Positions 2,692 to 44,389 of a stretch of 64,000 nucleotides of DNA are shown one piece after another. This stretch comes from Punctularia strigosozonata HHB-11173 SS5 (taxonomy: Eukaryota; Basidiomycota; Agaricomycetes; Corticiales; Punctulariaceae). Every line of letters starts with the position of its first letter. Position 1 is the stretch's first letter. Where the stretch lies: NCBI RefSeq assembly GCF_000264995.1, contig NW_006767434.1:117799-181798 (forward strand), read 5' to 3'. The notes beneath the pieces are model-generated. The model searched no databases and was not told the origin of the DNA. It worked only from the letters and a program-made list of their open reading frames with translations. The translations under genes and the position numbers were made by a program.

Positions 2692-3144
2692 TCATTCATA
2701 GCGGTAGGGGTGGGGGGAAACTTTATCCACGTCATCCCAGGGAATGAGCAGTCTCGCGTCAGGAACAACGACCCATTCCAACTTCGTGCCCGTCTCCTGT
2801 TCGAATTCGGACTTGAACTGGAGATCGGTTGGCCGTTCTGGAATCCAGATGCACGTTGACGACGTTGCCTTTGGGTCGCGCTGAGACCTACGGCCGAACA
2901 GGATGATCGGTTCGCCCGCCCTCGCGAGCTCAATACAGTCGTCAACTCGACGGATTAAGGCCCTGGGCCACTCGGTAGACATGATTCTCGCGGACCGGGC
3001 CAGCTTCTCTTTCGGCCAAGCGCGCTCCATCTCATCGTAGAGGTCGGCGGGGTCGTCAGTAGGCCAACCACGTTTCTTCGCCCAGATTTCAGCTTGGTCG
3101 TAGCTGAGTTTGTAGCCTGCGACGACTACAGCTCCTCGCGCCAT
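2692..3144 (-). CDS. Cluster family protein, copy 2 (unknown function, 150 aa)
   Basis: Intronless frame. The start was set at the ATG giving MARGAVVVAGY, which matches the start of copy 4 (MARGVLVVAGY); the frame stays open upstream without a conserved start. Shared family landmarks: AGYKLSYDQAEIWAKKRGWP at the N-terminus, then STEWPRALIRR, EPIILFGRR, DPKATSSTCIWIPE, and EWVVVPD followed by IPW. It ends in YRYE, as copy 4 does. Copies 2 and 4 are the closest pair and flank the nuclease-like gene at 5288-6169. Soluble, no signal peptide. Its biochemical role is not recognised. Confidence 0.78.
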   Translation of the reverse strand: MARGAVVVAGYKLSYDQAEIWAKKRGWPTDDPADLYDEMERAWPKEKLARSARIMSTEWPRALIRRVDDCIELARAGEPIILFGRRSQRDPKATSSTCIWIPERPTDLQFKSEFEQETGTKLEWVVVPDARLLIPWDDVDKVSPHPYRYE

Positions 3145-7560: not shown

Positions 7561-8013
7561 TCACTCGTATCTGTACGTCTTAGGCGCATGGTCTATGTCC
7601 TCCCACGGCAGTTCCAAGTCGGGATCGGGGACGGTCACCCACTCCACCTTGATATTCTCCGCTTTCTCGAGCTCTTCCTTGAAAGCTCTGTCGCCAGGCT
7701 CCTCCGGGATCCAAACGCACGAGCCCGAGGTCGCGCGCGGATCACGCAGGAATCTGCGGACGAACAGGATGATGGGCTCTCCATACTGGGCGAGCTCGAT
7801 CCGGTCGTCCATCCGCCTGATCATGGCCCTGGGCCAGTCCGTCCCCATGACTTCGACTACGGACTTGCGGAGCTCGTCGTTCGCCCAGCCGCGCTGTATC
7901 TTGGGCAGAATGTCCGCGCTTTTGTTGATGGGCCAGCCACGGCGCATCGCCCATGTTTCGGCTTCATCATAGCTGAAGGCGTAGCCTGCGACGACTAAGA
8001 CTCCTCGAGCCAT
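7561..8013 (-). CDS. Cluster family protein, copy 4 (unknown function, 150 aa)
   Basis: Intronless frame of 150 codons, closest to copy 2. Landmarks: MARGVLVVAGYAFSYDEAE, RRGWP, GTDWPRAMIRRMDD, EPIILFVRR, DPRATSGSCVWIPEEPGD, then VEWVTVPDPDLELPW and a YRYE end. The start is fixed by agreement with copy 2. It has the same length as copy 2, so these two probably represent the basic form. It is the last member of the cluster and lies 1.4 kb beyond the nuclease-like gene. No localisation signal is visible. Function unknown. Confidence 0.78.
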   Translation of the reverse strand: MARGVLVVAGYAFSYDEAETWAMRRGWPINKSADILPKIQRGWANDELRKSVVEVMGTDWPRAMIRRMDDRIELAQYGEPIILFVRRFLRDPRATSGSCVWIPEEPGDRAFKEELEKAENIKVEWVTVPDPDLELPWEDIDHAPKTYRYE

Positions 8014-10840: not shown

Positions 10841-13330
10841 ATGGAGTCCATGGTCTTCCCCTCCGTCGGCATGCGCGCGCTCAGCGCGACCATCCAGTTC
10901 GTCGGTGTGCATCCCCGCTCTTCCGTGTACCTCCACCCGCTCGTGGTTAACGCGCGTCGTGATCCCCGCCAGGCGTCACCCTCGTCACCCACTGCCTCTC
11001 GCGCCGCATCGCCGCCGAGTCGCTCTTCACCCGCGACGGCCTCCGCCAGCTCACCTTCGCGCGCGCGCTCATCCTGCTCATGCTCGTCGACTCCTGGCTC
11101 TTCGTCTTCACCAGTGCGTACCCCCCCCTCCCCATCCTCCTCCTATTTACTTCGTCCTCGCTCGATCTCATCGGCGCACCCACCAGGCAGCATGGTCATC
11201 TTCGGCGCCGGCCTCGAGCTCGACCACGGCGTCTGCTCCGCCGGCATCTACCTCTGCATCGCGTTCTACAGCACCTCCAAAGCGTTCGTCTACGCCTTCC
11301 TCGGTAAACCCCTCCTCTGTTTCTCCGCCCCTTTACCGCCCCCCCCTCATTCCACTCCTTTTACAGTCGAGAAAGTGCACATCGTTTGGGGCCCGGTCTA
11401 CGGCTCCTCGCGCCGTAGTTCGCCCGTGTACTACGTCTGCTGGGTCATCGTCGCCCTCTACGCCGTCGTCTGCATCACCCTCCTCTTCGGTGCGTCTCTC
11501 CTCCTCCTCCCCCCACCATCCCCCTCGTCCCATCTGCCGCCTCTCATCATTCCGCGCCCGCTTCAACTGAATCGTCGTCTACAGGTAAAAAGGCGTTTTT
11601 CCGCGCCCAAGACGGCGCGTGCGTCATCGGCCTGCGCAGCTTCGCCTCCATCCCGCTGCTCACGTACGACTTGTACGTAACCCCTCCTCCCTCCCCAGCC
11701 CCTCCACCTCTCCCAACTCTAAACTTCCCACAGGTTCGTCAACGTCGCGCTCACCACCCTCTTCCTCTGGCCCCTCTGGCAATCGCGCAAAGGCAACACG
11801 CTCATCAAACGCGTCGCCTCCCGCACGCTCGTGTGAGCAACCCCCCCCCCCTCCTCCTCTTNNNNNNNNNNNNNNNNNNNNNNNNNNNNNNNNNNNNNNN
11901 NNNNNNNNNNNNNNNNNNNNNNNNNNNNNNNNNNNNNNNNNNNNNNNNNNNNNNNNNNNNNNNNNNNNNNNNNNNNNNNNNNNNNNNNNNNNNNNNNNNN
12001 NNNNNNNNNNNNNNNNNNNNNNNNNNNNNNNNNNNNNNNNNNNNNNNNNNNNNNNNNNNNNNNNNNNNNNNNNNNNNNNNNNNNNNNNNNNNNNNNNNNN
12101 NNNNNNNNNNNNNNNNNNNNNNNNNNNNNNNNNNNNNNNNNNNNNNNNNNNNNNNNNNNNNNNNNNNNNNNNNNNNNNNNNNNNNNNNNNNNNNNNNNNN
12201 NNNNNNNNNNNNNNNNNNNNNNNNNNNNNNNNNNNNNNNNNNNNNNNNNNNNNNNNTCTTCCTCTGGCCCTCTGGCAATCGCGCAAAGGCAACACGCTCA
12301 TCAACGCGTCGCCTCCCGCACGCTCGTCGTCGACGCAACCCCCCCCCCCTCCTCCTCTTTCTCTCGCTGTGACTGACAACGCTGACGGAATGATGTACAC
12401 GTTAGCGCCGCCCTCGTCGCGCTCACCACCTCAACGATCAACATCCTCCTCCTCACCCTCCGCTCCGGCGCCGAGCTCGGCTGGGTCTGCCTCGGCGCCT
12501 GCTCCGCCGACGTCCTCGTCAACGCCCTCGCCGTCTTCTGGGTAACCTGGACCCCGTCCGCCTCCCGCCCCGACGAGAGCCGCCAGCAGGCCGTCCCGCC
12601 CTGGCGCACCGTCGCGTCCTGGAAGACCAGCGATTTCGATCTCGCCGACGCAGCAGCAGGAGGTGGAGAGGGAGGGGGAGGGGGAGGAGGGGGAGGAGGG
12701 GGAGGAGGGGGGTTCACGATCCGCTTCGCGACTTTGGACTCGTCGTCGCCCGCGCACACGCTGCACGACGCCGTCCCCGTGCGGCCCGTCCCGCTCGCGC
12801 GAACCCGCTCCTCGGCCGCGATACGGTACGCCGCGAGCGCCACGCCCTGGGAAACGCAATCCCCCACGTTAGAGCGACGAGACGAGGTAGTAGAGGAGGG
12901 TGGCCAGGGCCAGGGTCCGGGTCAGGGTCAGGGTCAGGGTAGGCGGTGGCCGCGGAGACCGTTCGCGCCCAGAGCAAACTCGCTCGGCTCGCTAAGGGGT
13001 ATCGCGAACGCGCTCGGACGACGAGGGACGGAGGCGCAGCCGGGTACGGATCTACAGGTCCAGGTACGTTAACGCATATACTGGGGGGTAAAAATTTCTG
13101 GGGACGGAGATCCTGACGAACGCTCGCGTTTTGCGTAGGTCACGAGGATAGATACGAACGACGCCGGCGTCGATACGGGCGGCGGCGGCGACGGCGGAGC
13201 TCGATATACTGTCGAACCCGAAACGTTACCGGACGTCGCCGACGACGGGCCGGCGCCGACGCGATATGCGCTCCACCTCGAGGGTGGGATACATGGACCG
13301 ACGGCACTTCCTCGGACGGGCGTTCCTTAG
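10841..13330 (+). CDS. Multi-pass membrane protein, Agaricomycete family (about 490 aa), interrupted by assembly gap
   Basis: Eight exons in consistent phase: the start MESMVFPSVGMRALS at 10841; then a segment beginning GVTLVTHCLSRR; SSMVIFGAGLELDHGVCSAG; VEKVHIVWGP; GKKAFFRAQDGACVIGL; FVNVALTTLFLWPLW; a long seventh exon starting AALVALTTSTINILLL; and a last exon starting VTRIDTNDAG and stopping at 13330. About six or seven hydrophobic segments lie in the first 270 residues, then a long hydrophilic tail with a poly-Gly run and Gly-Gln repeats. The pattern KVHIVW then GACVIGL then SIPLLTYDLFVN recurs in Agaricomycete membrane proteins of unknown function. The N run at 11862-12256 falls in the sixth intron, whose flanking exon is duplicated by the assembly (see gap entry). 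Role unknown. Confidence 0.7.
11760..12361. other. False assembly gap with duplicated flanks
   Basis: Ns run from 11862 to 12256 (395). The 102 bp left of the gap (11760-11861) reappear to its right (12257 to about 12361), with a few differences: one C missing in the CTGGCCC run, one A missing after CATCA, and a disturbed stretch before the poly-C. Both copies end in a run of Cs followed by TCCTCCTCTT. The simplest reading is two contigs that overlap by about 100 bp and were not merged because of the homopolymer, so the true gap is about zero and the exon is present once. Confidence 0.85.
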
Positions 13331-13769
13331 TCCATGTTACCGTATCGGACCTTTTGTATTCCCTGTTTACCCCACTTCACTGTGTGTACGACTATCGATG
13401 ACCGCGAAAAAGACCTGGGTGTCAAAGATTGTCTGCGCCATCCAATCGGCCATATGTCCACGTTAACCCCCACCCCCCGCGAGGCATTCGGTGTTGAATC
13501 CACGGTTGGAAGGCGTGCCTCGCTATTCTCGAAGGCGCGCGCGTCGGTGGGGTCACGCCATTACTCCACTCCTTGAAATCGAGCTCAACTCGAATTTACG
13601 CGATTCTATTTCCTCGAGGAACCGATAATAACGCATCGTCACCAACGGGACTCGAATTCCTTCGCGTTTCGGCCGCGAACGAGAACCAGCGGCATACGTG
13701 GTATCCCTTTTTTCTCCTCCAACGAGCGAGCGAGATCTCTCGTCTACGCGCCCGTACTCGCCCTCCGGC
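13331..13769. other. Spacer
   Basis: 439 bp between the end of the membrane protein gene and the ASCC1-like remnant. No feature recognised. Confidence 0.4.
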
Positions 13770-14434
13770 CCCCCCGGACTGCCTGTTCTCGCAGATCTAC
13801 CACCTGGTCCACCGTCCAGGTCCCGAGGTCGACGTCAACCGGGCCTTTCCATTTGGCACGTTTATGGTTGGGGGTTTCGACCGGCTGCCGGAGCTGGGTC
13901 GGCGGCGGCGGCGGTGGCGGCAAAAAAGGGGCCCCGGCGGCAGTGGCGGATGCGATTTGGCTGAAGGCGGGAGAAGCGAGGATCGGAGGTGTGTTAAGAG
14001 AGCGGCAGGCGTTGATCGCGTCGGAGGGCGCGCGGCTCCCGGTATAGACGGTGTTGATCAGCGTGCAGTGGAGCTACACAGCAGTCAGAAGTCGATCGAA
14101 TCCGTCCACGTCTCGGTCCGACCCATGAGCTGGTCGAACGTCTGGGGGGAGGGAAGGTAACCTGAGAGGTCGGTGTTCGTCGTAGACCGGTCCCGCGCGG
14201 CGCAAGTTGCCTGTTAATGAGAGCCGTGATAGTGGGCACGTTCAGCTCCAGATAGAGGATGGGCTCGAAAGTTGGCAACATGGGGAACAGCAATTCACGG
14301 CTCACGCGTTCGAGGCGCGCGTGCCTTCGGGAAGCCACGCAGGGCCGGCCCAAAGGACGTCCACTCATACGTCGATCGAGGTTAAGGGCATCTGGACCTC
14401 TCGTCCTTGGACAAGTCGTCGTGGACGGGCTCAA
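13770..14434 (-). pseudogene. Truncated, decayed copy of the ASCC1/AKAP7-like gene
   Basis: Minus-strand DNA that aligns with exons 4-6 of the intact gene at 21417-22873 but lacks its first three exons. Recognisable pieces: PLTSID (then an in-frame TGA), ARLERVSRELLF, LHADQHRL in a shifted frame where the intact gene reads LHCTLINT, and near the 3' end GPVDVDLGTWTVDQV followed by a shifted, truncated end. Intronic DNA is alignable as well, so this is a genomic duplication, not a processed copy. Several small indels and stops rule out a full product. It lies 7 kb from the intact gene with the plus-strand NACHT-WD40 gene between them. Confidence 0.75.
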
Positions 14435-15434: not shown

Positions 15435-18400
15435 ATGGCTGTGCGTAAGACATTTCGCAAGATCCGCAATCGCGTCGCGCATAGAGCTGGGCCCGGCAAC
15501 CCTATGAACGATCCTGCGTCCCCCGCCTCTTCGTCATCAGGCATCGGTGTATCATCCGCCACGGTGGGCCTCTCCATTCCGTGACTATCGATCGGCAACG
15601 CATCTGACTGCGGTACGGTACAGAATGCCCCTGTACAACACGAAGGGCCGGCCGTGGGCACTGACATAAACGAGCAGACGAAGGACAACATCATGTCACG
15701 AGGGGATCAAAAGGTAAAGGCATACTTATAAGGCGATCTTCGAGATCGGCTGACGTATGGCATGCGCAGGATAATCGATATAGCGTAGTCGCGGGGCCCG
15801 TCGGGAAACCATCCTCGGATATGGCCACGGCACAACAAGCTATAGAAGGGGCGAAGGAGGATTTTTCGGCCATGCGTTCCATCGGACTAGCTGAAGGAGG
15901 AGCTGCCTCAGCAAAGAACTGGGGGCCGCTGTTTAGCCGTGTCAAGCTGTTCACCGAGCTCGTCGACAGTATCGCCGAGGTAAGTGTTCACGGGTCCGTG
16001 CTGCGCGGTTGCGCTCTTATACCTAGCTGGGTATCAGGTCCATCCGTACGCAAAGATAGCTTGGAGCATACTGTCCACCGTGCAGAAGGTGAGCCACCTG
16101 CATCGGGCCCGTGCTACCTCCTTTAAAGGCTGGTCTTTCTAGACCGTCATCAGCCAAGTCGAGATCGATCAGTCCGTCCGTGATCTTTTGGACACTATCG
16201 AGGCCGTATACGAGTTCATGGATCAGGCTCAGCCCGTGAGCTGCGTCATACCGGCGGCGAAACTCCTCACGGCCCTGGCTCAGCAAACTACCGAGTGCGG
16301 CTACTTCATACGTGACTACGCGAAGAACAAGAATTTCGGTACGTTGAAGTTCCACCAGGCCCGCGTCTCGCTTTGACCTCCCGGCAGTAAGGAGGACCGC
16401 GTCAAACGCCTTGAAGTCACTCGTTCATCCTGCTGAAGCCGCGCCAAAGCTGGTTAGAGATTATCAGGACAAATTTGCGGAGCTGAAGGAGCAACTCCTC
16501 GATGGGTCGACGATCAGGACGGAGATCGCCGTCCAAGAAGTGAATCTTGTCCTCCGCAGGGTATTGAATACGGTCGAGGAGACTGGTAAGGACCGTTGGC
16601 TAGTCATCTGCCGCGCTGATCGTTGGCTGCCTCTAGCTGTGGACGTCCAGATGATGCGTTTGTACGACGCCTGCGCGAGGGGCTCTCGGTTCAACAGCGA
16701 GAAGAGATGCCTCCCAGGAACCCGTCAAACGATTCTACAGAACATAGTGGACTGGATCAATGATCCGCTCGATCCACGTCGCATGTTCTTGCTCTCCGGT
16801 CCGGCAGGATCAGGCAAGTCGGCAATCGCCCACACTATAGCGGCTTTGTTTCACGAGATCCGTTGCTTGGGATCCTCGTATTGCTTTGATAGGTCCAAGG
16901 CGGAGCTCACCCGTACTTCTCCCTTCTTCCCCACCATCGCCCGTGACCTCTCCGAGTGGGATCCTGAGATGAAGCTCACGCTATCGAACGCCATCGCTCA
17001 AGATTCCGCTCTCGTCACGTCCGACGATGTAGTAGGACAGTTCCGGCGCCTGATTGTAGGCCCCATGAAACAACTCGCGATGTCGGGTCCGATCGTCATC
17101 GTGATCGATGCCCTCGACGAATGCGATTCGTCTGCACGCAGCAGCCTTCTGTCGGTTTTACAGAGTCAGAAGGAAGAGGACGTGCTCCCGTCCAATGTTC
17201 GAGTCCTCATCACTTGTCGGCCGGAACAAGACATCACGGACGCGCTTCGGCACGCGCCCCATGTTCGCATTCACTCGATGAGTGATGTTCTTGACGCCCC
17301 CACCAACGAGGAGGACATCCGATTGTACGCTCGTGATAGATTGTCCACTGTCTTCTCCGCCCCGGAAGACCTCGGGATGATATCCGCCCAGGTGGTCCGC
17401 TCAGCGGAAGGACTCTTTCAGTGGGCAGCCACCGCTTGTCGCATTTTAGTCGCAAGGAAGCCGCCGAGGTCCATCCAGCAACGGATAGCAATAGTATTTC
17501 CCCCGGCTGGCCAGCGCCCGACGAAGGGGCACCTCGACGAACTGTACCTACAAGTATTAGCATTCACATTTCCTCCCACGGATGCGGATGTGATCGAGAA
17601 CTTCCGTCGGGTGATGAGCCCCCTCCTTACGGCCATCGAGCCGCTCTCGATCTCATCCTTGCAGGATATCTTATACGGACAAGATCCGGATATAATCAAC
17701 GAGGTACTCGCGGGCATGGGGTCGCTTTTATCGGGCACGGACGGTTCTGCCAGAGATGCTGTTGTCCGGCCATTACACACCTCGTTTCGGGACTTTATTC
17801 TAGATCCTCAACGTAGTCAGGAGTTTGCTATCGGGCCAGGGGTAGACGAGCACCGAGACTTTGCACGGGGGACTCTGGGCTTGCTCCTCAGCAGTCGGCT
17901 GCACTTCAACATGTGCAAGCTCGAAACATCCTATCGACTCAACGCGGACATCCCTGGCTTAGGCGAGCGCGTACGCGCGAACATCCCTCCGAGTCTGGTC
18001 TATTCCGCCCGCTACTGGGCTGATCATCTCGAGAAGACGGCGTATGACCCTGACCTCCAGGAAATGACGGAACAATTGCTGAAAGAGAAGTTCCTGTTCT
18101 GGGTTGAGGTCTTGAGTCTTATAGAGTCGATGGTCACCTGCGCATCGGCACTCGGGAAGCTCAAGGAGTGGATTCCAAAGGCATGTCACTTCTATGTATG
18201 TCTACGTCTCACAGCTCACATATTGTTCTACGCCTAGGACGTCGTGGCAGGACTGGAAATGGACTCCATTATCCAGGATTTCCTCAGATTCATCCGAGCA
18301 TTCGGGATGACGATCGGTGCTTCTGCTCCGCACCTTTACCTCTCAGCCGTACCATTCGCCCCTGCGAGGTCCAGGATATGTCAGCTTTATGAAGCAAGGT

Positions 18401-20674
18401 TCTCCCGACGAGCCGTTGTCGAGTGCGGCAGATCGGAAGAGTGGCCAGCGCTCGAATGCACCATGGAGGGTCATGACGACAGGGTCCTCTGTGCCGATTT
18501 TTTGACCAACAGAAAAGATGTTGTCTCCGTATCGTGGTGCAGCGGGGGGTGCACTATACACGTCTGGAATGCTGAGACTGGACAGCCGACTCGACGACCT
18601 GTGCATTGTGATGCAGGTGATAGTGAGGTAGTCTGTGCCGCGTTATCCTCAGGGAAAGACCTCGCAGTTGTGGGGCTCGAAGGCGGCACAATCCTTGTTT
18701 ATGAGGTCACCACAGGACAGACCATACGCACGTTCAAAGGGCATACAGACTACGTTTCATCGGTTGCTTTCTCTCCCGATGGCAAGCGTGTCGTATCGGG
18801 TTCAGACGACGAGACAGTGTGCATTTGGGATGTGCAGTCTGAGCAACTTGTCCATCCACCGCTTCAGGGACACACCAATCATGTCACCTCCGTGGCTTTC
18901 TCGCCTGACTCCCATTGGGTGGCCTCAGGTTCGTTGGACGGGACAATCTGCTTATGGAATACTACAACCGGGCAGCTTGTGTGCGAGCCATTGCGCGGCC
19001 ATTCAAATGCGGTGTTCTCTGTCATGTTCTCGCACGATGGCGAGTGCATCGTTTCCGGCTCGTATGACGAGACCGTTCGCTTGTGGGATACCACGTCAGG
19101 CCAGTCTCTTGGTTCCCCTTTTGAGGGACCTTCCCGCTGCGTCATATGTGTGGCAATATCTCCCGACAAGAGGTTCATTGCATCGGGTTCTTCGGTCGGG
19201 GTCATTCATCTCTGGGATGCGACAGAACGTACTCTGTGTGCAACTTTCCGTGGTCACGTCGAAAAGTTGACATCATTAGCCTTCTCAAAAGACGGCCAAC
19301 ACATCGTTTCTGGATCTGTGGACCGGACTGTAAGGGTGTGGGATGTGTCAGGTCGACGCACTGATATGGGTATCGCTGGAAGTCACCCTGAGTGGCTTGG
19401 CGAGATGGCTGTTTCACTAGATGGAAAGTCTATCGTCACCTGGTGTAACGAGGATATCACTGTGTGGGATGTTTCCACGGGGACTGCTGCTGTTCAAGGC
19501 CGGCGATGGCGGGGGCACGAAAGACAGATATTCTACATGGGGTTCTTCCCCGATGGATGTCGTGTCTTATCGTGCTCGTACGACGATACTGTTCGGATGT
19601 GGGAAGTCTCCACCGGACAACTGATCCACCAATTCCGAGTTCCAAACGAGGAAGACATGAGTGTTATTGGCTGGTGCTGCGCAGTCATATCTCCTGATGG
19701 GCGGTTCGTCGCAATGGCAAGATCAGAACAAATACGAATATGGGACATCTCCACCGGGACACTGGTGCATACTCTCCAAGGTCATACTGGCGAAACCTGC
19801 GCCCTAGCTTTCTCTCCAGACGGGCAGCACATGGCATCGGGCGCGGTTGACGGCACTTTACGTCTGTGGGACTTTGCAACAGGCCAACCCGCTGGTGCAC
19901 CACTGGAGGGACACGCCCGTTCAGTAAACATTGCCTTCGCGCCCGATGGCGCTTACCTCGTGTCCGGTGACTCCGACGGCGTCATTCGGATCTGGGACAC
20001 CGCCACGGGACAGACCATCTGCGATCCTTGGCGCGGCCATGACAGTTGGATACGCTCTGTCGTTTTCGCGCCCAATGGTCGATGCGTGGTCTCGGGCGGA
20101 TTCAATTGTGCAGTTCGCGTTTGGGACGCGTTCACTGGAAGGCCGTTCCGCGAGCCGTTTCTGGGACACACAGACTCCGTCAGTCATGTGGCCTTTTCGT
20201 CGGAGGGAAAATGCATCATATCATGCTCTCGCGACCATACCATCCGCTTCTGGGATGCCTCTACGAAGTGCCCTGAGTCTGACGAGGGACCGGAAGGTGC
20301 GTACTTTACATGGCACTTGATCTCACTAACGGTCCCATCTGGTAGATGATCACGCTGTCCTACGACGACCGCATCCTGTCTCATTCTCGCCAAACAGAAG
20401 TCACGCTCTCGCCGACATCCAGCTCATAGTACCTGACGCTGAGGAGATGTCATGGTTCCAGGTTGACGATTCATTCACGCTGCAGGGCGACGGCTGGCTT
20501 ATGGGATCTGATAAACGGCGCCTACTCTGGATTCCGATTCAGAACCGCAAGCTGCTGTGGAGGTCGCAGAACAGGCGGCTCGTGATATCTCCAGAGGAGG
20601 TCACCACGCTTAATCTGAGCAACTTTGCTCATGGCGAGAAGTGGGCCGAATGCTTCAAGCAGGAAGCAGCATGA
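15435..20674 (+). CDS. NACHT-WD40 STAND (NLR-like) protein A, 1606 aa
   Basis: Nine exons: 15435-15563, 15624-15713, 15770-15979, 16038-16088, 16143-16338, 16388-16585, 16637-18195, 18238-20296 and 20346-20674; all phases agree. Residues about 75-290 form a helical N-terminal region (WGPLFSRVKLFTELVDSIAE, VHPYAKIAWSILS) resembling the N-terminal domain of basidiomycete STAND proteins (Goodbye-like; assignment tentative). The NACHT NTPase has Walker A GPAGSGKS near 346-353 and Walker B IVIVIDALDEC near 444-454. A helical linker follows. Then come fourteen WD40 repeats (about 885-1495), enough for two seven-bladed propellers, and a conserved tail of about 110 residues (DDSFTLQGDGWLMGSDKRRL). 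Fungal proteins of this plan act in heterokaryon incompatibility (HET-E/HET-D) and non-self recognition; that role is inferred. Intron 6 (51 bp) has no stop and is divisible by three, so retention would keep the frame. Confidence 0.88.
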
Positions 20675-21416
20675 GCTTGCGCACGATTAGCTCAAAATGG
20701 CTCGGTGGGAGGGCAGTGTAACAGGAGTCACTGGTCTTGGCACGTTACGTTCTGGACCACGCCGCCTCTGAGGCTACCTTCAAGCCTACGTCCCCGTCAA
20801 TCCCAGTCAATCAACGAGAACGAGCCGAAGATCGTAGTTGTTGACATATCCACGAAGCAATCGGTGCGAGACTTGCAATCCGGACATTTTATCGCGGAAG
20901 ACTACGTTGCGCCCTCCATTCTGACGTCTTCCCTCGCATGTAAACAGCATATCTCGTGTGAGGCATAGTCACAAGACGCGTGGTCTGCCATCGTCTTTCC
21001 TTGGGCCGTGACGTGATTCCATGTTGTCGCGCCGAGTATACGTAGGGAATTTTTCAAGTCTTAGGATCGGTACATGTCATCAGTACAAATCTAGTACAAA
21101 AGAGAAGTTTGTTCACGCTGCAACGTCAGAAGCCACGAAAAGGCAAGCATCCTGTCGATATGCTCACTTTTTGTTATGTACACGGAATCGTATGTCCTGT
21201 CGGGTACATCATTCACCCTGTTGACCGCGTCGTAAGTTCCGAGCCACGTTCAGTTGCGATATTCATCCTTGACTCCCGAAGGCGCGCGTCGGTCGAGGTT
21301 ATTAAGCACGTTCGCACTCCAACCATACGGTGTCCAAAATTGATTTACATTCAGGCGCGATGTATATTCCTGACGAACCTTATCGTAACAGACACCCGGA
21401 GCAAATATATCCGGTG
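20675..21416 (+). pseudogene. Stranded tail fragment of the seven-helix membrane protein family (within a spacer)
   Basis: At 20749-20968 the plus strand reads LRLPSSLRPRQSQSINENEP and then KIVVVDISTKQSV, ending GHFIAEDYV. This matches the cytoplasmic tail of the gene at 23615-24995 (LKLPSGPEPRHSQFIDDNDL, KTVVIDISAARSV, SGSLTLEEYV). DNA just upstream is also alignable over a short distance. No membrane segments precede it, so only the last exon survives. The rest of 20675-21416 shows nothing recognisable. Confidence 0.6.
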
Positions 21417-22873
21417 TCAACACGGGAGCGAAATCCTGCCCACGCACACGTACTCGCCCTCCGGCCCCTGACTCCCCATCTCGCAGATCTGCACCTCGTC
21501 CACGGTCCAGGTGCCGAGGTCGACTTCGACCGGGCCCTTCTGTTTCGTCCGTTCCTGGTTTGAGGTTCGAACGACTGCCGGAGCTGTGTCAGTGGCGGCG
21601 GCGGAAACGGGTCCTGCGGCAGTGGCGGGGGCGATTTGGCCGAAGGCGGGAGAAGCGAGGACGGAAGGGTAGGAGAACGGCAGGCGCTGCCCGCGCGAAG
21701 GGCGCGGCTTGCGGTAGACCGTGTTGATCAGCGTGCAGTGGAGCTAGCGGTCAGAAATCAATTGAGTCGTCGGTCAAACGTCTCGGTCGAACCATGAGCC
21801 GCACGACTGCGGCCGGACGTCTGGATTCGGGGAAGGAGGGAAAGTCACCTTGAGAGGCCGGTGTTCGTCGACGACCAGTCCCGCGCGACGAAACTCGCTA
21901 TTGATGAGGCCTGTGATAGGTGGCACGATAAGCTTCAGGCAGAGGATGTAACCACGGGGAATGGCAGCTCACGGCTCACGCGTTCGAGGCGCGCGTACTC
22001 CTCGTCCAGCGTGCCTTCGGCAGGCCGCGCAGGTCCGGCCCAAAGGACGTGTGCTCGCTCGGGATTACCCCGCTCGGGTTTCATGATGTCCATCGAGGTT
22101 AAGGGCACCTGCACCAGAAATAGTATCGGTGACCTTGAGACGCAGGAGGAAGATAGGGCGAATACTGACGCGGAGAGGGCTTCCGTGGAGCTCGCGCAGG
22201 ATCTGGGGCCGAAGGACTCGCAGGAACGCGCAGGCGTCGTACAGCGTCTTTTGCGGGGGCGTGTCTGAGGACGTGCCGGTGCCGGTGCCGGTGCCGGCGA
22301 GGCTCATCACGCCCAGTGTGAGGTGCAGGCGGCGCGGGTTGACGAGCACCGACTCGTGTAGACCTGCGATAGGCGGGTCGGTCGCCATCAGCGCGGCGTG
22401 GAACGCGTTGATTCGCGTTCGAAGCGCGGGATGGTGTCCCTGCGGCGAGTCAAAACGCAGACGTGTCAATTCGGTGACGACACGTTCGCCAAAGCAGAAA
22501 AGAAACAGAGGAGTTCGAGAAACGGGGAAGGCGCAAGGAGACATCGCTGGGTGCATCTCAACGCACAATCGGGAGAGCGAGAACTGCACGGGGTCGTTGT
22601 GAGCCATCATCACTAGCAGATGGGATACTAGAGGCGCGGCTCACAGTGCGTCAAACGAGGCTTGGGTGCCGGCCTCATCTGGCTCGGTGTAGCGAGGATT
22701 GGTGCTCCTGCTTGATTCTGCGATACCGAGGATTCGTTTTCACCGCGTTGACCTCGACCGCGCCCTCGTCCACGGCCTCGGCCCCGTCCCCGTCCCCGTC
22801 CCCGTCCCCGTCCTCGACCACGAACGTCCGATACCACGAGTGAGTCCGGTTGCGTTGCCTGCGGAAGGCTCAT
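21417..22873 (-). CDS. ASCC1/AKAP7-like protein with 2'-5' RNA ligase-like (2H) domain, 346 aa
   Basis: Six exons in consistent phase: 22873-22645, 22567-22583 (17 nt), 22439-22170, 22108-21973, 21910-21849 and 21743-21417. The N-terminus has an RG-repeat tract from a (CCCCGT) hexamer run. The body reads THFLALPIGHH, then LHLTLGVMSL (first H-x-T/S motif of the two-histidine phosphoesterase fold), VPLTSMDIM, RPLKLHCTLINT (second HxT motif) and GTWTVDEVQICEMGSQGPEG. This is the AKAP7 2'5' RNA ligase-like domain also found in ASCC1, a subunit of the activating signal cointegrator complex; unlike human ASCC1, no KH domain is seen. A 2H enzyme of this group would hydrolyse or bind 2'-5' or cyclic phosphate RNA ends; the exact role is inferred. 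A (GTGCCG) hexamer run adds a Gly-Thr loop. Confidence 0.82.
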
Positions 22874-23614
22874 CGGCTGCACCGAAGAAGTTGGGCGTGC
22901 AGCAAGCCTAAAGGCCTAACCAGTTATCGACACTACGAGCTGGCTTGAAGGAGGCAACGGATGTTGCTGCGTATACGAACTCAGGATGACGTAGCGCGCA
23001 CGGTCGCGCTCGTCGGACATTGCCGAGCAATCGACACATTCTTGGGTCCTTACTCGACACGAACTCGTTACAAACAGTGCTATCGCAGCCCCACCGAAGG
23101 GAACGCTGGAGGACCTTACGAAAGAGATCGTGTCTCCTCCAGTCTCGTTGGGAATTACCGAGACCGTTTGCTGACGGACGACGCTTGTTAACTGTCCTCT
23201 GGATTGCTTCAGCCTACTTTCCGCAATAGCTTTGGGCGCGAACTAAGATTTCTCATCTCTGATACCCCCACTCCATATATAACCATCACTGTACTACACG
23301 CTTGCCTTCCATCTGATACGATCCACCCGGCGGTCTCGTAGTCGACAGGTTACGCTGCAGGAAGAGCGGGTATACTGAGGATAGACGAGGCGGAGATGCG
23401 CGCGGTATACTTACAGCTGATCAAGGCCGAGGATTCCAGGGAGAATACGAAGTGCTTGCGGCAAGCGGGAGCGATGTTACCATTTCTGGGCCAAGACCTG
23501 TGCTTGCTCGCTGCGACCGGCAGAGCCTCGAATGGTGTTGATGGAAACACGTAAAGGGGTCTTATAAAGGAGAAAACTCGATGAAAAGCATATGTCCTCC
23601 GCACCCCCTTTGCT
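22874..23614. promoter_or_regulatory. Divergent upstream region of the ASCC1-like and membrane protein genes, with TATA
   Basis: About 740 bp between divergent start codons. TATATAA at 23276-23282 lies about 330 bp before the ATG at 23615, too far for a short leader but possibly the TATA element of that gene. Nothing else recognised. Confidence 0.35.
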
Positions 23615-24995
23615 ATGGCTGGCTCCAAGTATTCGACGAGGTTACGGGCAGTGAGCATGTTCTGCGAGACCCTGCTACACGGTACATCTAGCGCGCTCAT
23701 CACTCATCGCTGGTATTGACTCGTCATCGTAGGTATTTATGTTGCATTGTTGGTCTTGACGGTCAACATTCTGTGCGCAACAAATTCTCTACCCGGAATT
23801 CTATGCTTACCTCGTCTTGAAGAATCAAGAGGAAGACGCGAGCAAGCAGAGTCATGATCATCATCGCCATTGTGATGTATGGATTCGCTGCAGGCCATCT
23901 CGCCATCACGCTCTTTCAACTCCTGGAGGCGATTACACTGGCTCAACGTGTCGAAGACCCCTGGCTACCTGCGAATACGGCTCAAACATTCATCGAAGGA
24001 GTCAATGCGAGTACCAATTATGCTTTGCTCGTTCTGCTGTTGACAGCCTGACACAGTATGTCCTCGGAGATTTCGTAGTCATCTGGCGAGTATGGGCGGT
24101 GTGGGGACGCGACTGGCGTGCGTGCGTTGCGCCGTCCGTGCTGCTCTTCGGCTCACTGGGTGAGACCGAGATCGTTTATACACGCGACGCTTGACCAATC
24201 TAGAAAACTTGGGATATTCAGTTGTCGTTTTAGGAGGCGCACATCAACAGTCGATAACGCCCGCTGGGGGGTTCACGGTGAATCCCGAGGTTGGGGAATG
24301 GGCAACGGCTTTCGCCGTGCTTACTCTCGCCACGAATACGTGTTGTACTATCCTAATCGGGATACGAGCATGGTACTCCGCTCGTACTGGTCATCAGCTC
24401 TGCATCTGATTTCCAACCAGGTCACTGTCGCGGATATCTGGAGCAGTGCCATTGAAGACACGCGCAATGAGCTCTCGGATTCTTCTTCTATTGGTGGAGA
24501 CTGGTGCTCTCTACAGCGCGACGTGGGTGAGAAGCCGACCTGGAACGTATTGTTACCTCCCTGCTCATCTCTTCTGGATTCACTAGATTGTAGTCCTCTC
24601 CCTATTTGGGTCCGGATCGCTGGCGTACGAAGTCCTGACCAGCTGCTTACCTCAACTGGCCGTGAGCACTTTTCCGCATTGCGCTCTACATATCACCAAC
24701 CAAAGCGACTCACCTACAGGCCATTTACCCTACTCTGCTCCTATTTGTGGTCCATCGCGTATACAGCGATCCCTGCTCCGGTCCAGTGGATTCAGCAACC
24801 CTCCTGCCGCCGTCCTTGAAGCTACCTTCCGGCCCCGAACCACGTCATTCGCAATTCATCGATGACAACGATCTGAAGACTGTAGTGATAGATATCTCTG
24901 CCGCACGATCTGTGGGCTTGGAATCAGGGAGCTTAACCCTAGAAGAATATGTTATGCCCTCCCTGCTATGCGACCCCTCTCGCGCTCTGGCATGA
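23615..24995 (+). CDS. Seven-helix membrane protein, Agaricomycete family of unknown function
   Basis: Exon 1 is 23615-23681, exon 2 23733-23772, exon 3 starts at 23823; later exons are assigned by motif. The spliced start reads FCETLLHGIYVALLVLTVNI, then IIIAIVMYGFAAGHLAITL, LGDFVVIWRVWAVWG, EWATAFAVLTLATNTCC, RILLLLVETGALYSATW, IVVLSLFGSGSLAY and AIYPTLLLFVVHR, followed by a hydrophilic tail ending at 24995. Seven hydrophobic segments in this order are typical of an abundant Agaricomycete membrane protein family with no assigned function. The junction after exon 3 (near 24000-24056) is the least certain. Remnants of its tail occur at 20749-20968 and 31701-31876, so it has been copied locally. 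It lies between the two NACHT-WD40 genes; a functional link is not implied. Confidence 0.75.
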
Positions 24996-25453
24996 CCACG
25001 ACACACTCGATGTACGGCCAATGACAAGGCCAGCGTCAGGAGTACACGTATGTGCGCCCATTCAGCGTTGATTGACAAGCACAGGGCTAAAGCGGCGTTT
25101 AAGAGCGGGCTTGCGATCAGACGGGCCGATGCAAGTGACTCGCATATATGCGAGCACTAGCGGAAGGACGAGGTGGGTACATTGGAAGACGCAAGAATGT
25201 CAACATGCCCATTGCCCGGTAGGTCACGTACGAACGTGATGTACAACAAGTATTCGACATAATCAGTGAGAACAAGCAACATCGATCCAGAGAACCTTGA
25301 TATATACCACACCGGTGTTCCCAAAAAGACCACCCCTGTCCATCGTGAACGTGTGTCAACCAAGGTTGTGAAGCACGGCAGCGGCACTAAACCTTGAACC
25401 TGATGATATGACTGCCCTCCCACTGAACAAGATTCGGTTCACCCTGCGCCTGC
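24996..25453. other. Spacer between convergent genes
   Basis: 458 bp between the stops of the membrane protein gene and NACHT-WD40 gene B. No feature recognised. Confidence 0.5.
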
Positions 25454-28400
25454 TCATGCTGCATCCTGCCTGAAGCATTCGGCCCACTTCTCGCCATGAG
25501 CAAAGTTGCTCAGATTAAGCGTGGTTACCTCCTCTGGAGATATCACGAGCCGCCTGTTCTGCGTCCTCCACAGCAGCTTGCGGTTCTGAATCGGAATCCA
25601 GAGTAGGCGCCGTTTATCAGATCCCATAAGCCAGCCGTCGCCCTGCAGCGTGAATGAATCGTCAAGTTGGAACCATGACATCTCCTCAGCGTCAGGTACT
25701 ATGAGCTGGATGTCGGCGAGAGCGTGACTTCTGTTTGGCGAGAACGAGACAGAATGAGGTTGAGGTAGGACAGCGCGATCATCTACCAGATGGGGCCGTC
25801 AGTGAGATCCAGTGGCATGGAAAGGTGACGCACCCTCTAGTCCCTCGTCAGACTCAGAGCACTCCGTAGAGGCGTCCCAGAACCGGATCGTGCAGTCCCA
25901 GCTGCATGATATGACATGTTTTCCGTCGCGTGAAAATGCAACACCGGTGACATAGTGTGTGTGACCCTGAAACGGCTCGCGGAACGGCCTTCCAGTGAAC
26001 GCGTCCCAAACGCGAACTGTACGATCGACCCCGCCCGAGACCACGCATCGACCATTGGGCGAGAAAACGACAGAGCGTATCCAACCATCATGGCCGCGCC
26101 AAGGATCGCAGATGGCCTGTCCTGTGGCAGTGTCCCAGATGCGGATTTCCCCCTCTCTGTCACAGGACACGAGAGAAGCGCCATCTCGCGAAAAGGCAAC
26201 GGAGAATACAAAACTGGTATGTCCCTCAAGTGATGCGCATGCCGGCCTGGGTTGGCCTGTTTCGAGGTCCCACAGACGTATAGTTTGGTCAAATTCGCTT
26301 GATGCGATGCACTTCCCGTCTGGAGAGAATTTTAGGGCCATGGCGCGAGTATGACCCTGGAGAGTATGCACACGTGTCTCAGTCGCGACGTCCATTATCC
26401 ATATCGGGCCGTCCATTGCCATTGCAATGAACCGCCCGTCCTGAGAGATGGCTGCGGGGTAACAGGTAAAGTCACCCTCGTCATCCCCAGTTGAAAATCG
26501 GAATGCGCGGATGAGTTGTCCGGTGGAGACTTCCCACATCCGAACAGTGCGGTCGTACGAGCACGATAAGACACGCCGTCCATCGGGGGAAAACTCCATG
26601 CAGAGCATCCCTTCGTGCCCTTGCAAGCGCTGGCTTTGAACGGCAGCAGTGCCCGTCGAGACATCCCACACACAAACGTCTGTACATGTGTCAATCCATG
26701 TGACGATAGACTTTCCGTCGGGTGACATAGCCATGTCGCCAAGCCTCTCGGAGTGTCTTCCAGCGATACTCATATCAGCGCGTCGACCTGACACATCCCA
26801 CACCCTTACAGTCCGATCCACTGATCCAGAAACGATGTGCTGGCCGTCTTTTGAGAAGGCTAACGATGTCAACTTTTGGACGTGACCACGGAAAGTTGCA
26901 CAAAGACAATGTTCTGTCGTGTTCCAGAGATGAATAAGCCCGAACGAAGAACCCGATGCAATGAATCTCTTGTCGGGAGAGATTGCCACACATATGACAC
27001 CGTCAGTATGGCCCTCCAAAGGGGAACCAAGAGGCTGCCCTGAGGTATCCCATAAGCGAACGGTCTTGTCATCCGAACCGGAAGCAATCCACTCGCTGTC
27101 GTGCGAGAACACGACAGAGTTCACCGTATTTGAATGGCCGCGCAACGGCTCGCACACAAGCTGTCCGGTTTCCGTATTCCATAGGCAAATCGTCCTGTCC
27201 TCCGAACCTGAAGCCACGCACTTGGAGTCAGGCGAGAAAGCCACAGAGGTGACCTTATCCGTGTGTCGCTGAAGCGGTAGATGGACAAGTTGCTCAGACG
27301 GCACATCCCAAATGCACACTTTCTGGTCATCCGAGCCCGACACGACACGTTTGCCGTCGGTAGAGAAAGCAACCGATCGAACCTGTTTCGTATGCCCTCT
27401 GAGCGTGTGAATGGTCTGTCCTTTGGTGGAAGAATAAACAAGGATCATGCCGTGGTTCATCCCCGCTGCTACCAAGTCTTTCTCCGAGGAGAACGCGGCA
27501 CAGGAGGCCCAACTACCACCTGCATCACAGTGTACAGGTCGGCGAGTCGGCTGTCCGGTCTCAGCATTCCAAACGCGTGTCGTGAACCCCTTGTAAGAGT
27601 ACGACACGGAGACATCTTTGCCATTCCTCGAGAACTCAGCACAGAGGACCCTGTCGTCATGACCCTCCATGGTGCATTCCAGAGCAGGCCACTCTTCTGA
27701 TCGGCCGCACTCGACGATGGCTCGTCGGGAGAACCTCGCCTCATAAAGCTGGCATATCTTGGAACTCGCGGGGGCGAATGCTAAGGCTGAGAGGTAAAGG
27801 TGCGGAGCAGAAGCTCCGATCGTCATCCCGAATGCTCGGATGAATCTGAGGAAATCCTTGATAATAGAGCCCATTTCCAGTTCTGCCACGACGTCCTATG
27901 CGTAGAACAATATGTGAGCTGTGAGACGTCGACATACATAGAAGTGACATGCCTTTGGAATCCACTCCTTGAGTATCCCGAGTGCCGATGCGCAGGTGAC
28001 CATCGACTCTATAAGACTCAAGACCTCAACCCAGAACAGGAACTTATTTTTCAGAAATTGTTCCGTCATTTCCTGTAGGTCAGGGTCATACGCGATCTTC
28101 TCGAGATGATCAGCCCAGTAGCGGGCGGAATAGACCAGACTCGGAGGGATGTTCGCGCGTACGCGCTCGCCTAAGCCAGGGATGTCCGCGTTGAGTCGAT
28201 AGGATGTTTTGAGCTTGCACATGTTGAAGTGCAGCCGTTTGCCAAGAAGAATGCGCAAAGTCCCGCGTGCAAATGCTTCATGCTCTTCCTTTCCCGGCTC
28301 AACGCAAAACTTCCCGCTGCGTTTACGATCTAGAACGAAATCCAGAAACGACGAGTGGTAGGGGCGGACGACTTCCTCAGTGTTGTTGCTGCCAGAAAGG

Positions 28401-30718
28401 AGTGATGCCATGCATTCGACCACCCTCTTGACTATTTCACGATGATCCGAGTCGTCTTGCCTGTATAAGATGTCCTGCAAATCAGAGACCGACAGTGGCT
28501 CCCTCGGCACCAGGATCAGGCGCATCACCGTCTGGTAGTTCTTCAGATTGGTGTCGTTGCCTTGCTCAGATAGGATTCCGAACCGCAGGACTTGCATGTA
28601 AAGGCGGTCTAATTGACCTTCCCCTTCACGAGAGGGTTTTATTGTCTCCATGCGTTGTTTGATCGACTGTGTCCCAGTGCTCGAGGCTATGAAACGGAAA
28701 GCAGTCGCCGCCCACTGGAATATTCCTTCAGCCCATTGGACAATCCTATCACATATCGACTCGAAGTCTTGCAGTTCTGCGTGGGACTGGGATAGCTTGT
28801 CATGAACGTATAATCGTAAGTCCTTCGCATTGTCGGGGTTCTTCAAGATACGAGTCATGGATTCATGACGGACATTGGATCCGAGGGTGGCCATAATGCT
28901 CGGCTGGAACCTGCAAGTCACCAGGATGCGGAAATTGGCAGGAAGGCCCCCCTCTTCCTCTTTGGTCGACAATATAGATAAAAGAAGGCGATGCGCGGAC
29001 TGTTCAAACTTTTCCACAGACTCTTTGCATTCATCCAGGGCATCAACGACAATCACTATCGGGCCGGGAATGGTGAGCTTCTTCGCGGGCTCTGCGATGA
29101 GACACCGAAATTGTTCGGCCAAGTCATCAGAAGTGAGGAGGGCGGAATTGCGGGCGACAACATCGGCGAGGACGGTTTTCATTAGGGGGAAACGCTGGGA
29201 CAAGTCACGGGCGATGGTAGGGAATAAGAACTGTGCGTTTGTGAGCATGTCCTTGTTCCGGTCAAAGAAATAGCAGGACCCTAAATGCTGGTTTTTGTCG
29301 AAAATAGATGCTATGGTGTGAGCGATGGCGGACTTGCCCACCCCTGCGGGTCCAGAGAGTACTAGCGCGCGGCGACTATCGTCCTGATCGTGAATCCAAT
29401 CGAGTATGATCCGCAGAATCGTTTCGCGGGTTCTGGGGAGGCATTTCTTCTCGCTGTTGTACCAGTATCCCTTGGCACAGGCCTCTTCCAACAGCCCCAT
29501 CCGGACGTTATCCGCTGAAGTCAATCAAAGGTCAGAGTACTGGACGACATACTAACGCACTCCATACCGATATCTTTGACGGCATTCCAGATCCTGTTGA
29601 CGGTGATCTCCGTCCTAATTGTCGCATGATCCAAGAGCTTCGACCTTAGCTTCTTCAAATTGCATCGGTAATCTTTAACCAACTCAGGCACCGCCTCGTC
29701 AGATTTGAAGACCTTCTTGTAGACGTTTGACGCCATTCGCGTTGCTGTCGGTAGGAGGTTAGAAGGATGATAACGCCCAATGGTTACTGAACACACCGAA
29801 ATCCTTGTCCTTCGCGTAGTCTCGTATGAAGTAGCCGCATTCCGTCGTCTGCTGGGCCAACGCCACGAGAACATCCCTCGCAGATAGGACGTCGTTCAAT
29901 GGACCCGCCTCTTCCACGAATTCATACACGTCCTGAATAGTGTCCAAGAGATCATAGATGGATCGGTCAAGCTCCACCTGGCCGATGACAGTCTACAATA
30001 CCAATATTTGAAGGGATTAAAGAGGGCCGATGTGGATCACTCACCTTCTGCACGATGGACAGAATGCTCCAAGCCATCTCTGCGTAGGGATGAACCTAAT
30101 GCCACAGTCAGGACAAGAGCGAAACTCAAAGAAAGAAGTCGTGAATGCTCGCCTCGACGAGTTTGTCGACGAGCTCGGTAAACTTCTTGACGCGGCTTAA
30201 CATCGGCCCCCATGATTTTGCCGTCGAGACCAGTCCCTGGGCAAGGTCTTTCTTTTGGTCGACTACAGCAACGCCTCTTTCCGCCAGTGAGCTGGGATTC
30301 ATGGCCGAGATCCCCTCCTTCGCAGCTTTCAAGGCGGTGGCCATCTCCGAGGATGCTGGTACCATGTCTTTATTATCCTGTGCATGCTATACGTCAGCCA
30401 AGTCAATGAGCATCGTAGAAACGTGTCTTTACCTTCTGTGCCCTTTGCGACGTGCTGTCGTCCTTGGTCTGTTCATTTCTGCCGGTGGCCACAGCCGGTT
30501 TTTCGGGTTGCGCAGAGGTGGGCTACATTGAAACTATCGTCAGATGCGACGCCAAGCAATGGCCACGGCTTGAGAGGGCTCACCGTGGAAAATGATGCCT
30601 CGATGCCCGATGACGAAGAGGCGCGAGGCGCAGAATCGATTGGAGGGTTGCGGCGGCGAGCTTTGCGTGTGATGCGATCGCGTATCTTGCGAAGTTTCTT
30701 GCACAAACGCAAACGCAT
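25454..30718 (-). CDS. NACHT-WD40 STAND (NLR-like) protein B, 1613 aa
   Basis: Nine exons on the minus strand: 30718-30584, 30522-30433, 30377-30153, 30095-30045, 29992-29797, 29744-29568, 29514-27938, 27895-25834 and 25782-25454, all in phase and with every intron at the same place as in gene A. Intron 3 has a GC donor (GAG|GCGAGC), supported by VEVHPYAEMAW aligning with AEVHPYAKIAW in A. Architecture: basic N-terminus, helical N-terminal region (SWGPMLSRVKKFTELVDKL), NACHT with Walker A GPAGVGKS and Walker B IVIVVDALDEC, helical linker, fourteen WD40 repeats and the same C-terminal tail. Against A the NACHT core is 68 of 113 residues identical, while the linker is 94 of 99. An intracellular ligand-sensing switch is inferred from the STAND plan. 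Confidence 0.88.
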
Positions 30719-44017: not shown

Positions 44018-44296
44018 AAGTAAAACCTCTAAAAAGGGAGGCTTATACCAAGAACCTGATATAGCGAGTTTCTACTGTACTCGACGATAGAATATTGAAC
44101 GGCTGCCTGTGTACTGTATCGAAGTGAACACGAAGTTCAGAGGGTCATTCCATATTGGTGGTGTCCGTTCCCTTGCCGAAAGTTCGATACTCCTGATGCA
44201 ACCATTCTTCGTCTGTATCATAATCCTGATGCCGATACATGGTCATACCGAACAGGTGCAAGAATGCCACTGGGGGCATGAACTGCAAAAGCTATT

Positions 44297-44389
44297 GCAT
44301 TAAGGGGGAATCGAACCCCCGGCGGGTCGAACTCGTCCATCGAACGGATTCGCTGGCAACGACCCAGGTTACCACTACCCCATTAATGC
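44297..44389 (-). tRNA. tRNA-Gly(GCC) with a 23-nt intron
   Basis: Reading the minus strand, a 7-bp acceptor stem GCATTAA/TTAATGC, D-stem GGGT/ACCT with loop AGTGGTA, anticodon stem GGTCG/CGACC, loop TTGCCA with anticodon GCC and A37, and T-arm GGGGG-TTCGATT-CCCCC. A 23-nt intron follows A37, the canonical position. Mature length would be 70 nt plus CCA. TTTT lies a few bases beyond the 3' end (reverse of AAAA at about 44287-44290), a Pol III terminator. The D-loop and anticodon loop match fungal tRNA-Gly(GCC). Confidence 0.9.

What the first reader, a model, noticed from the sequence alone, without database searches (positions are those of the whole stretch)
15435..30718. Inverted pair of intact NACHT-WD40 (NLR-like) genes
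Two genes of 1606 and 1613 codons, each with nine exons at identical positions, face each other tail to tail around a 4.8 kb spacer. Both keep Walker A, Walker B, fourteen WD40 repeats and a conserved 110-residue tail. Known fungal NACHT-WD40 proteins of the HET-E/HET-D kind act in allorecognition, so this locus is a candidate for non-self recognition or immunity. Seen: structure and motifs. Known: family roles. Inferred: the role here.
Basis: partly seen in the sequence, partly recalled or inferred. Interest (0 to 1): 0.75.

Follow-up and report, generated by a model that had tools for sequence, protein, structure and literature searches.

The report
Paired fungal immune-receptor genes, sensors diversifying
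Two neighbouring fungal genes are intact immune-receptor-like genes that share a recently exchanged sensor half, and that sensor changes fastest at the same contact points as known fungal self/non-self receptors, which makes a recognition role likely but not proven.

Summary
Genes A (15435-20674, +) and B (30718-25454, -) are intact, 1606 and 1613 codons, nine exons each: N-terminal region, NACHT/NPHP3_N ATPase, 14 WD40 repeats, ~109-residue tail.

They are mosaics, not a plain inverted duplicate. Before codon ~712 (window 17896) silent sites are saturated or nearly so and introns 1-6 near random; after it, introns 7-8 included (95%, 86%), DNA is 74-97% alike: a recently exchanged or converted sensor half. 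The best changepoint lies at codons 712-731 in 8 of 17 close pairs, in all three paralogue groups compared.

In the WD40 repeats, change concentrates at positions 7, 9, 25, 27, the sites reported under diversifying selection in Podospora HET-D/HET-E. Amino-acid change there is 2.1-3.6 times the repeat-wide silent rate in three groups, 0.35-0.44 elsewhere. Yet repeats are only ~37-46% alike.

I read them as NLR-type non-self receptors. N-terminal region and tail match no family above cut-off. No expression or strain data; structure prediction did not complete.

The parts
15435..20674 (+). Gene A, nine exons, 1606 codons: N-terminal region, NACHT/NPHP3_N, linker, 14 WD40 repeats, tail
25454..30718 (-). 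Gene B, nine exons, 1613 codons, same architecture; intron 3 GC-AG
15911..16690 (+). Gene A, conserved N-terminal region (aa ~121-310, exons 3-7; helical by my reading, not predicted); weak sub-threshold match to DUF7708
16717..17220 (+). Gene A, NACHT/NPHP3_N P-loop domain (aa 319-486); Walker A 16798-16821, Walker B 17092-17124
   Evidence: sequence
29027..29353 (-). Gene B, Walker A (29353-29330) to Walker B (29059-29027) of the NACHT/NPHP3_N domain
   Evidence: sequence
17896..20717 (+). Gene A arm of the shared sensor half (linker, WD40, tail, introns 7 and 8, to just past the stop); changepoint of A-B divergence at 17896 (codon ~712)
25411..28237 (-). Gene B arm of the shared sensor half, opposite A 17896-20717 (coordinates from the repeat arms)
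18466..20259 (+). Gene A, 14 WD40 repeats (enough for two seven-bladed propellers); positions 7, 9, 25, 27 (and 6) hypervariable between paralogues
20346..20674 (+). Gene A, exon 9: conserved C-terminal tail, no Pfam, NCBIfam or PDB match above chance
25454..25782 (-). Gene B, exon 9: conserved C-terminal tail

Best explanation
A and B are two intracellular STAND/NLR-type receptors of a fungus. Shown here: an NTP-binding NACHT/NPHP3_N domain with intact Walker motifs, a 14-repeat WD40 array long enough for two propellers, a conserved N-terminal region and a conserved tail. Inferred: the propellers form a clamp whose top-surface loops touch a partner molecule that differs between self and non-self; contact lets the ATPase switch oligomerise; the N-terminal region then signals, most simply by local cell death as in other fungal NLRs. 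Shown: the loop positions that would touch the partner change fastest, and faster than silent sites, so selection favours new specificities. Shown: the sensor half (linker, WD40, tail) of A and B has a much more recent common origin than their signalling halves. Inferred: ectopic gene conversion or recombination between paralogues moves or homogenises the two halves separately, with a recurrent junction at the conserved motif around A codons 713-727 (L-F-N-M/I-C-x-L-x-T/S-S-Y).
For: Architecture and intact frames. Family: 23 NACHT matches, 18 over the cut-off, and 23 tail matches in the genome. Diversifying sites: positions 7, 9, 25, 27 are the four most variable of 30 among five C2-cluster genes and four of the top five in A-B, the other being position 6. 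With an HMM register, dN there over repeat-wide dS is 2.08 (A-B, 12 repeats), 3.03 (C2 cluster, 11) and 3.63 (C12 cluster, 11), the other positions 0.35, 0.44, 0.35. Manual register, 9 of 14 repeats: 2.24 (bootstrap 1.29-3.52) and 3.07 (2.36-3.68). The excess holds against other loop/turn positions in 11 of 11 pairs (p 7.7e-15 to 1.8e-4; pairs in a cluster are not independent). The same four positions are reported under diversifying selection in Podospora (PMC1805685, PMC2873952, passages). Shared sensor half: changepoint at 17896, 0 of 1000 block permutations as strong; fourfold-site difference A-B 0.43-0.67 before, 0.06-0.26 after; introns 1-6 at 65-71% against shuffled maxima of 63-70%, introns 7 and 8 at 95% and 86%; C-half tree joins A and B at 100/100 and rejects A with the C2 cluster (AU p 7e-5). 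Junction: 8 of 17 close pairs at codons 712-731, in all three groups.
Against: No expression, strain or phenotype data. The N-terminal region matches no effector family above cut-off, so the output step is inferred. Against silent changes at the four sites themselves the ratio is lower: A-B dN 0.61 to dS 0.42, C2 0.60 to 0.21. The old C7 pair gives 0.41 with dS 1.3. N-half trees do not reject A and B as sisters (AU p 0.15-0.20), one mixture-model tree joins them weakly (62/50), and residues 1-120 are more alike between A and B (0.52) than between A and other paralogues (0.22-0.37); so the mosaic rests on silent sites, introns and the changepoint. In residues 121-310 A-B silent divergence is lower than elsewhere in the N-half (dS 0.73). 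9 of 17 close pairs have their best changepoint elsewhere (codons 220, 380, 380, 381, 546, 546, 783, 784, 889), and where the N-half is slow and the C-half fast the changepoint may reflect rate, not exchange. No codon-model likelihood test was run.
Confidence: 0.74

Rival explanations
1. A simple recent inverted duplication, in which the N-halves then evolved unusually fast.
For: N-half trees do not reject A and B as sisters; residues 1-120 are more alike in A-B than in A-others; 400 nt of 5' flank are 72% alike against 61% shuffled.
Against: Silent sites (dS 0.7-2.3) and introns 1-6 of the N-half are saturated or near random while the C-half and introns 7-8 are not; protein-level acceleration does not cause that. 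Changepoint stronger than 1000 of 1000 permutations.
Confidence: 0.08
2. Exchange happened, but the other way round: A and B arose by recent duplication and one then received a different N-half (signalling half) from an older paralogue.
For: Gives the same mosaic; over residues 121-700 A is closer to the C2-cluster genes (51-78%) than to B (44-59%) in raw identity. N-terminal swaps are reported for fungal NLRs (PMC4986451, PMC9815663, passages).
Against: Residues 1-120 point the other way (A-B 0.52, A-others 0.22-0.37), and the 5' flanks of A and B are homologous at about N-half divergence, so the swap would have to spare or replace those too.
Confidence: 0.22
3. The hypervariable positions are merely unconstrained loop residues drifting neutrally.
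For: Loop residues of WD40 proteins vary more than strand residues in general (recalled).
Against: Amino-acid change at these sites is 2.1-3.6 times the repeat-wide silent rate in three groups, and exceeds other loop/turn positions in 11 of 11 pairs.
Confidence: 0.12
4. A sensor-helper NLR pair acting together, like paired plant NLRs.
For: Two adjacent NLRs with diverged signalling halves.
Against: They are tail to tail, whereas paired plant NLRs are described as often head to head (PMC12258605, passages); both keep Walker A and B and a full WD40 array.
Confidence: 0.07

Closest known systems
HET-D / HET-E / HET-R (HNWD) of Podospora anserina
   Same: NACHT plus C-terminal WD40 sensor in a multigene family; the same four repeat positions (7, 9, 25, 27) diversify; HET-E is modelled as two seven-bladed propellers (PMC12222747, section 17 read), and 14 repeats are counted here.
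   Different: No HET domain found; repeats 37-41% alike instead of over 80%; a conserved tail that is not mentioned in the HET-D/E passages I read; exchange seen as a whole sensor half rather than single repeats.
Fungal NLRs at large, incl. Agaricomycete NACHT-WD repertoires (PMC4986451, PMC9815663; passages and one section)
   Same: Tripartite architecture, expanded clustered family, modular evolution; WD repeat counts reported to drop sharply above 14.
   Different: N-terminal region outside the HeLo, Goodbye, SesA and NACHT_N models; diversifying sites shown here in repeats of low internal identity.
BaMLKL (basidiomycete MLKL-like) NLR N-termini (PMC9815663, passages)
   Same: A conserved region upstream of NACHT; one of 12 members has a weak RPW8 match (E 0.16).
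   Different: No profile match above cut-off; fold not tested; that the genome is a basidiomycete is inferred.

Membership tests
Fungal NLR (STAND NTPase with C-terminal repeats) | NACHT or NB-ARC type nucleotide-binding domain with Walker A and B | tested here: met
   NACHT 36.0 and 33.7 bits, cut-off 26.7; NPHP3_N 93.1 and 85.9 bits; motifs intact in the translations
Fungal NLR (STAND NTPase with C-terminal repeats) | C-terminal WD, ANK or TPR repeats | tested here: met
   PF00400 in 11 and 10 stretches; 14 repeats counted by eye
Fungal NLR (STAND NTPase with C-terminal repeats) | Recognised N-terminal effector domain | tested here: inconclusive
   DUF7708 below its cut-off (best 22.2 bits against 25; 8 of 12 members at E up to 1); 14 other families matched by one or two members each, best CorA E 0.0047; best PDB match E 0.15
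HET-D/HET-E (HNWD) | N-terminal HET domain (PF06985) | tested here: not met
   not among matches of A residues 1-506 or B 1-511 at E up to 10 (HMMER filters drop most above 0.1)
HET-D/HET-E (HNWD) | High internal repeat conservation (about 85%) | tested here: not met
   mean 0.37-0.41, max 0.55 in seven genes, 9 of 14 repeats each; HMM register, 10-12 repeats: mean 0.37-0.46, max 0.63
HET-D/HET-E (HNWD) | Diversifying selection at WD40 positions 7, 9, 25, 27 | tested here: met
   between paralogues, by counting; the saturated C7 pair does not show it
HET-D/HET-E (HNWD) | Repeat-number polymorphism and incompatibility with het-c alleles | not testable with these tools
   one genome, no strains, no phenotype
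Goodbye / HeLo / SesA / NACHT_N N-termini | Match to PF17109, PF14479, PF17111 (PigL_N in this copy), PF17107 or PF17100 | tested here: not met
   none listed for A or B or for the 12 N-terminal regions (15 families listed); Goodbye over cut-off at two other places in the genome; PF17111 nowhere in it at E 0.1
BaMLKL | Four-helix bundle with an extra N-terminal helix | not tested

The most novel reading that the evidence does not exclude
These NLRs are built from two separately inherited cassettes, a signalling half and a complete sensor half (linker, two propellers, tail), joined at a conserved junction (A codons ~712-731). Ectopic exchange there keeps recombining old signalling cores with young sensors, while point changes at four or five loop sites per blade tune specificity. 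This would be a second route to fungal receptor diversity that needs neither high repeat identity nor repeat shuffling, and the conserved tail would be an undescribed closing or coupling domain of the sensor.
Probability: 0.4. Interest if true: 0.72.

Novelty: new variant of a known kind. Interest (0 to 1): 0.6.

Why it matters
The passages I read tie diversification of fungal WD40 receptors to near-identical, shuffling repeats. Here the same contact sites diversify in repeats that are only about 40% alike and keep their register across close paralogues. Since 21.6% of WD repeats in fungal NLRs are reported to show high internal conservation (PMC4986451, section 13), many of the rest may be diversifying recognition receptors too. 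It gives a concrete site list (4-5 residues per blade) for testing what fungal receptors recognise, and a junction for testing whether sensor halves are exchangeable.

Tried and rejected
Rejected: a plain recent inverted duplication (introns and silent sites disagree between halves). Rejected: HET-D/E membership (no HET domain, low internal identity). Rejected: Goodbye N-terminus (found elsewhere).

Led nowhere: PDB profile searches with the N-terminal region (best E 0.15) and the tail (best E 0.6); Pfam with 12 tails (two families, one member each, E 0.093 and 0.097) and NCBIfam (none); the search for related loci with the tail profile stopped because no stretch was conserved enough and was not repeated, so relatives outside this genome were not examined. 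DUF7708 searched over the genome as single exons gave one match, elsewhere, below cut-off. A literature search for DUF7708 found 0 papers. Structure prediction did not complete. N-half tree topology stays unresolved. Of 20 flanking ORFs scanned, 15 gave no Pfam match at E 0.001.
Full report
What was checked. The window lies in contig C2 (117799-181798) of an unnamed 33.6 Mb genome in 32 contigs, fungal by gene content and introns (inferred). Intron 3 of B uses a GC-AG donor. Pfam finds NPHP3_N and NACHT in both and many overlapping WD40/propeller models. I count 14 repeats by eye; PF00400 passes in 11 (A) and 10 (B) stretches. The last exon gives a tail of about 109 residues, 93% identical between A and B.

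Family. 23 places in the genome match NACHT, 18 of them over the cut-off, and 23 match the tail; the tool calls such counts lower bounds. Near relatives form a cluster on the same contig at 374-527 kb (three on +, five on -); others lie on C12, C7, C19, C15, C8 and C6. I modelled spliced paralogues with a protein-to-DNA aligner of my own. Given protein B and gene A's DNA it returned five of nine exons right (one of them lacking only the stop) and four with shifted ends, so paralogue models are approximate. Several stretches read N, and some relatives are partial.

A and B are mosaics. Overall protein identity is 65% (1065 of 1640 columns), unevenly spread: 44-59% in segments up to residue 700 and 55-93% from 722 on. 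A two-rate changepoint on the genomic alignment falls at window 17896, log-likelihood gain 150.8, reached by 0 of 1000 block permutations; the longest identical run, 114 nt just after it, was reached by 0 of 1000 permutations of the C-half. On the codon alignment it falls at codon 712 (698-715). Fourfold-site differences between A and B are 0.43-0.67 before and 0.06-0.26 after; A or B against C2-cluster genes gives 0.48-0.65 before and 0.21-0.50 after. Residues 121-310 are the least diverged part of the N-half between A and B (dS 0.73, fourfold 0.43). Introns 1-6 are 65-71% alike, about the maxima of shuffled sequence (63-70%), introns 7 and 8 are 95% and 86%. Constraint on protein does not explain introns, so the halves have different histories. 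The C-half tree puts A with B (100/100) and rejects A with the C2 cluster (AU p 7e-5). The N-half trees do not reject A with B (p 0.15-0.20), and one mixture-model tree joins them weakly (62/50). In raw identity A is nearer the C2-cluster genes (51-78%) than B (44-59%) over residues 121-700, but residues 1-120 go the other way (A-B 0.52, A-others 0.22-0.37). A and B may thus be old sisters whose sensor halves were later converted; direction is not known. On this recheck I lowered the rival of a swapped N-half from 0.30 to 0.22.

Recurrent junction. In the C12 cluster, C12_951 shows the same mosaic: fourfold differences over codons 121-711 are 0.53-0.83 against C12_916 and 939 and 0.25-0.89 against 904, but 0.00-0.21 after codon 801; best changepoint codon 727 in all three comparisons, 0 of 500 permutations each. 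C12_916-939 changes at 731 in the opposite sense (N-half near identical, C-half diverging). In the C2 cluster three of ten pairs change at 722-723, one of them with a wide interval (606-730). In all, 8 of 17 close pairs (A-B, ten C2, six C12) have the best changepoint at codons 712-731, in all three groups; the other nine have it at 220, 380, 380, 381, 546, 546, 783, 784 and 889. The four pairs with the distant C12_961 gave small gains (9-15) at codons 79-132 and are not counted. The stretch 713-737 is seventh of the most conserved non-overlapping 25-residue windows in ten representative genes.

Diversifying contact sites. Repeats were numbered with the conserved W at 32; then V is 8 and D is 26, as in the Podospora numbering, where codons 8 and 26 are conserved and 7, 9, 25, 27 are under positive selection (PMC1805685, passages). 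The mapping is mine and fits that spacing. In nine of 14 repeats with standard spacing (five dropped) these sites differ in 24 of 36 codons between A and B against 58 of 321 elsewhere (Fisher p 3e-9) and 36 of 160 at other loop/turn positions (p 7e-7). Among five C2-cluster genes they are the top four of 30 positions; random sets of four reach their mean at 0.0001 (A-B 0.0002). With an HMM register of 11-12 repeats, dN at the sites over repeat-wide dS is 2.08, 3.03 and 3.63 for A-B, C2 and C12, and 0.35-0.44 elsewhere. A first look at C12 with only four repeats gave 3.35. Against silent changes at the same few codons the ratios are lower (A-B 0.61/0.42, C2 0.60/0.21, C12 0.40/0.33). The old C7 pair (10 repeats, dS 1.3) gives 0.41, uninformative or contrary. 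Position 6, next in rank, would be position 11 in the later Podospora numbering if that is offset by 5 (my inference), one of seven high dN/dS sites (PMC12222747, passages). Among C2-cluster genes omega is 0.22-0.24 in the N-half domains and 0.61-0.71 in the propellers.

N-terminal region and tail. The region before NACHT is conserved across 12 paralogues. Only DUF7708 recurs (8 of 12 at E up to 1, best 1.4e-4, 22.2 bits against a cut-off of 25); the best PDB match is E 0.15. The tail has twelve invariant residues in 12 sequences and no convincing match in Pfam, NCBIfam or the PDB.

Surroundings. A 0.63-kb stretch of the spacer (21418-22050) has a 73% identical copy just upstream of gene A (13720-14360). 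It adjoins an ORF (22068-22640, -) with a sub-threshold AKAP7/2'-5' RNA ligase-like match (20.8 bits, cut-off 24.4); that both belong to one gene is inferred. A fragment just downstream of A resembles the end of another spacer ORF. Local duplications have thus reworked the locus.

Mechanism. Shown: intact switch motifs, long WD40 array, selection for change at its contact loops, mosaic history. Inferred from the family (HET-E recognises HET-C variants through its WD40 domain and its activation leads to cell death; PMC9815663, passages): ligand contact at the propellers, ATPase switching, oligomerisation and N-terminal output, most likely cell death. Whether the ligand is conspecific or from another organism is open.

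Literature. Eight searches of the held library gave no listing whose title or abstract start reports diversifying selection at these sites in WD40 NLRs of low internal identity, or whole-sensor exchange at a fixed junction. I read passages of six papers (PMC4986451, PMC9815663, PMC1805685, PMC12222747, PMC2873952, PMC12258605) and two whole sections. Most subscription papers and all preprints are not held, so absence there is weak evidence.

Noticed in passing
window 13720-14360 and 21418-22050: A stretch of the spacer has a 73% identical copy in the same orientation just upstream of gene A; it adjoins an ORF (22068-22640, -) with a sub-threshold AKAP7/2'-5' RNA ligase-like match.
   Followed up: partly
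window 20795-20965 and 24858-25019: A fragment just downstream of gene A resembles (44-50% aa) a stretch just after a spacer ORF (24079-24816, +, no Pfam match) beside gene B.
   Followed up: partly
G000 contig C2 373495-526900: A larger cluster of the same family on the same contig, three genes on + then five on -, with N runs; N-halves mostly near identical among the five well-covered genes, WD40 halves diverging.
   Followed up: yes
G000 contig C12 900654-969013: Second cluster with the same mosaic pattern and nearly the same junction; C12_951 carries an old N-half on a young sensor half.
   Followed up: yes
window 11862-12256 and 62568-63152: Two N runs, outside the locus.
   Followed up: no
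window 43256-61694: Ordinary gene pieces: CBM20 (43.3 kb, +), glutathione synthase (57.6-59.6 kb, -), trehalase (60.6-61.7 kb, +).
   Followed up: no
window 3043-3144 and 7912-8013: A 102-nt direct repeat, 73% identical.
   Followed up: no
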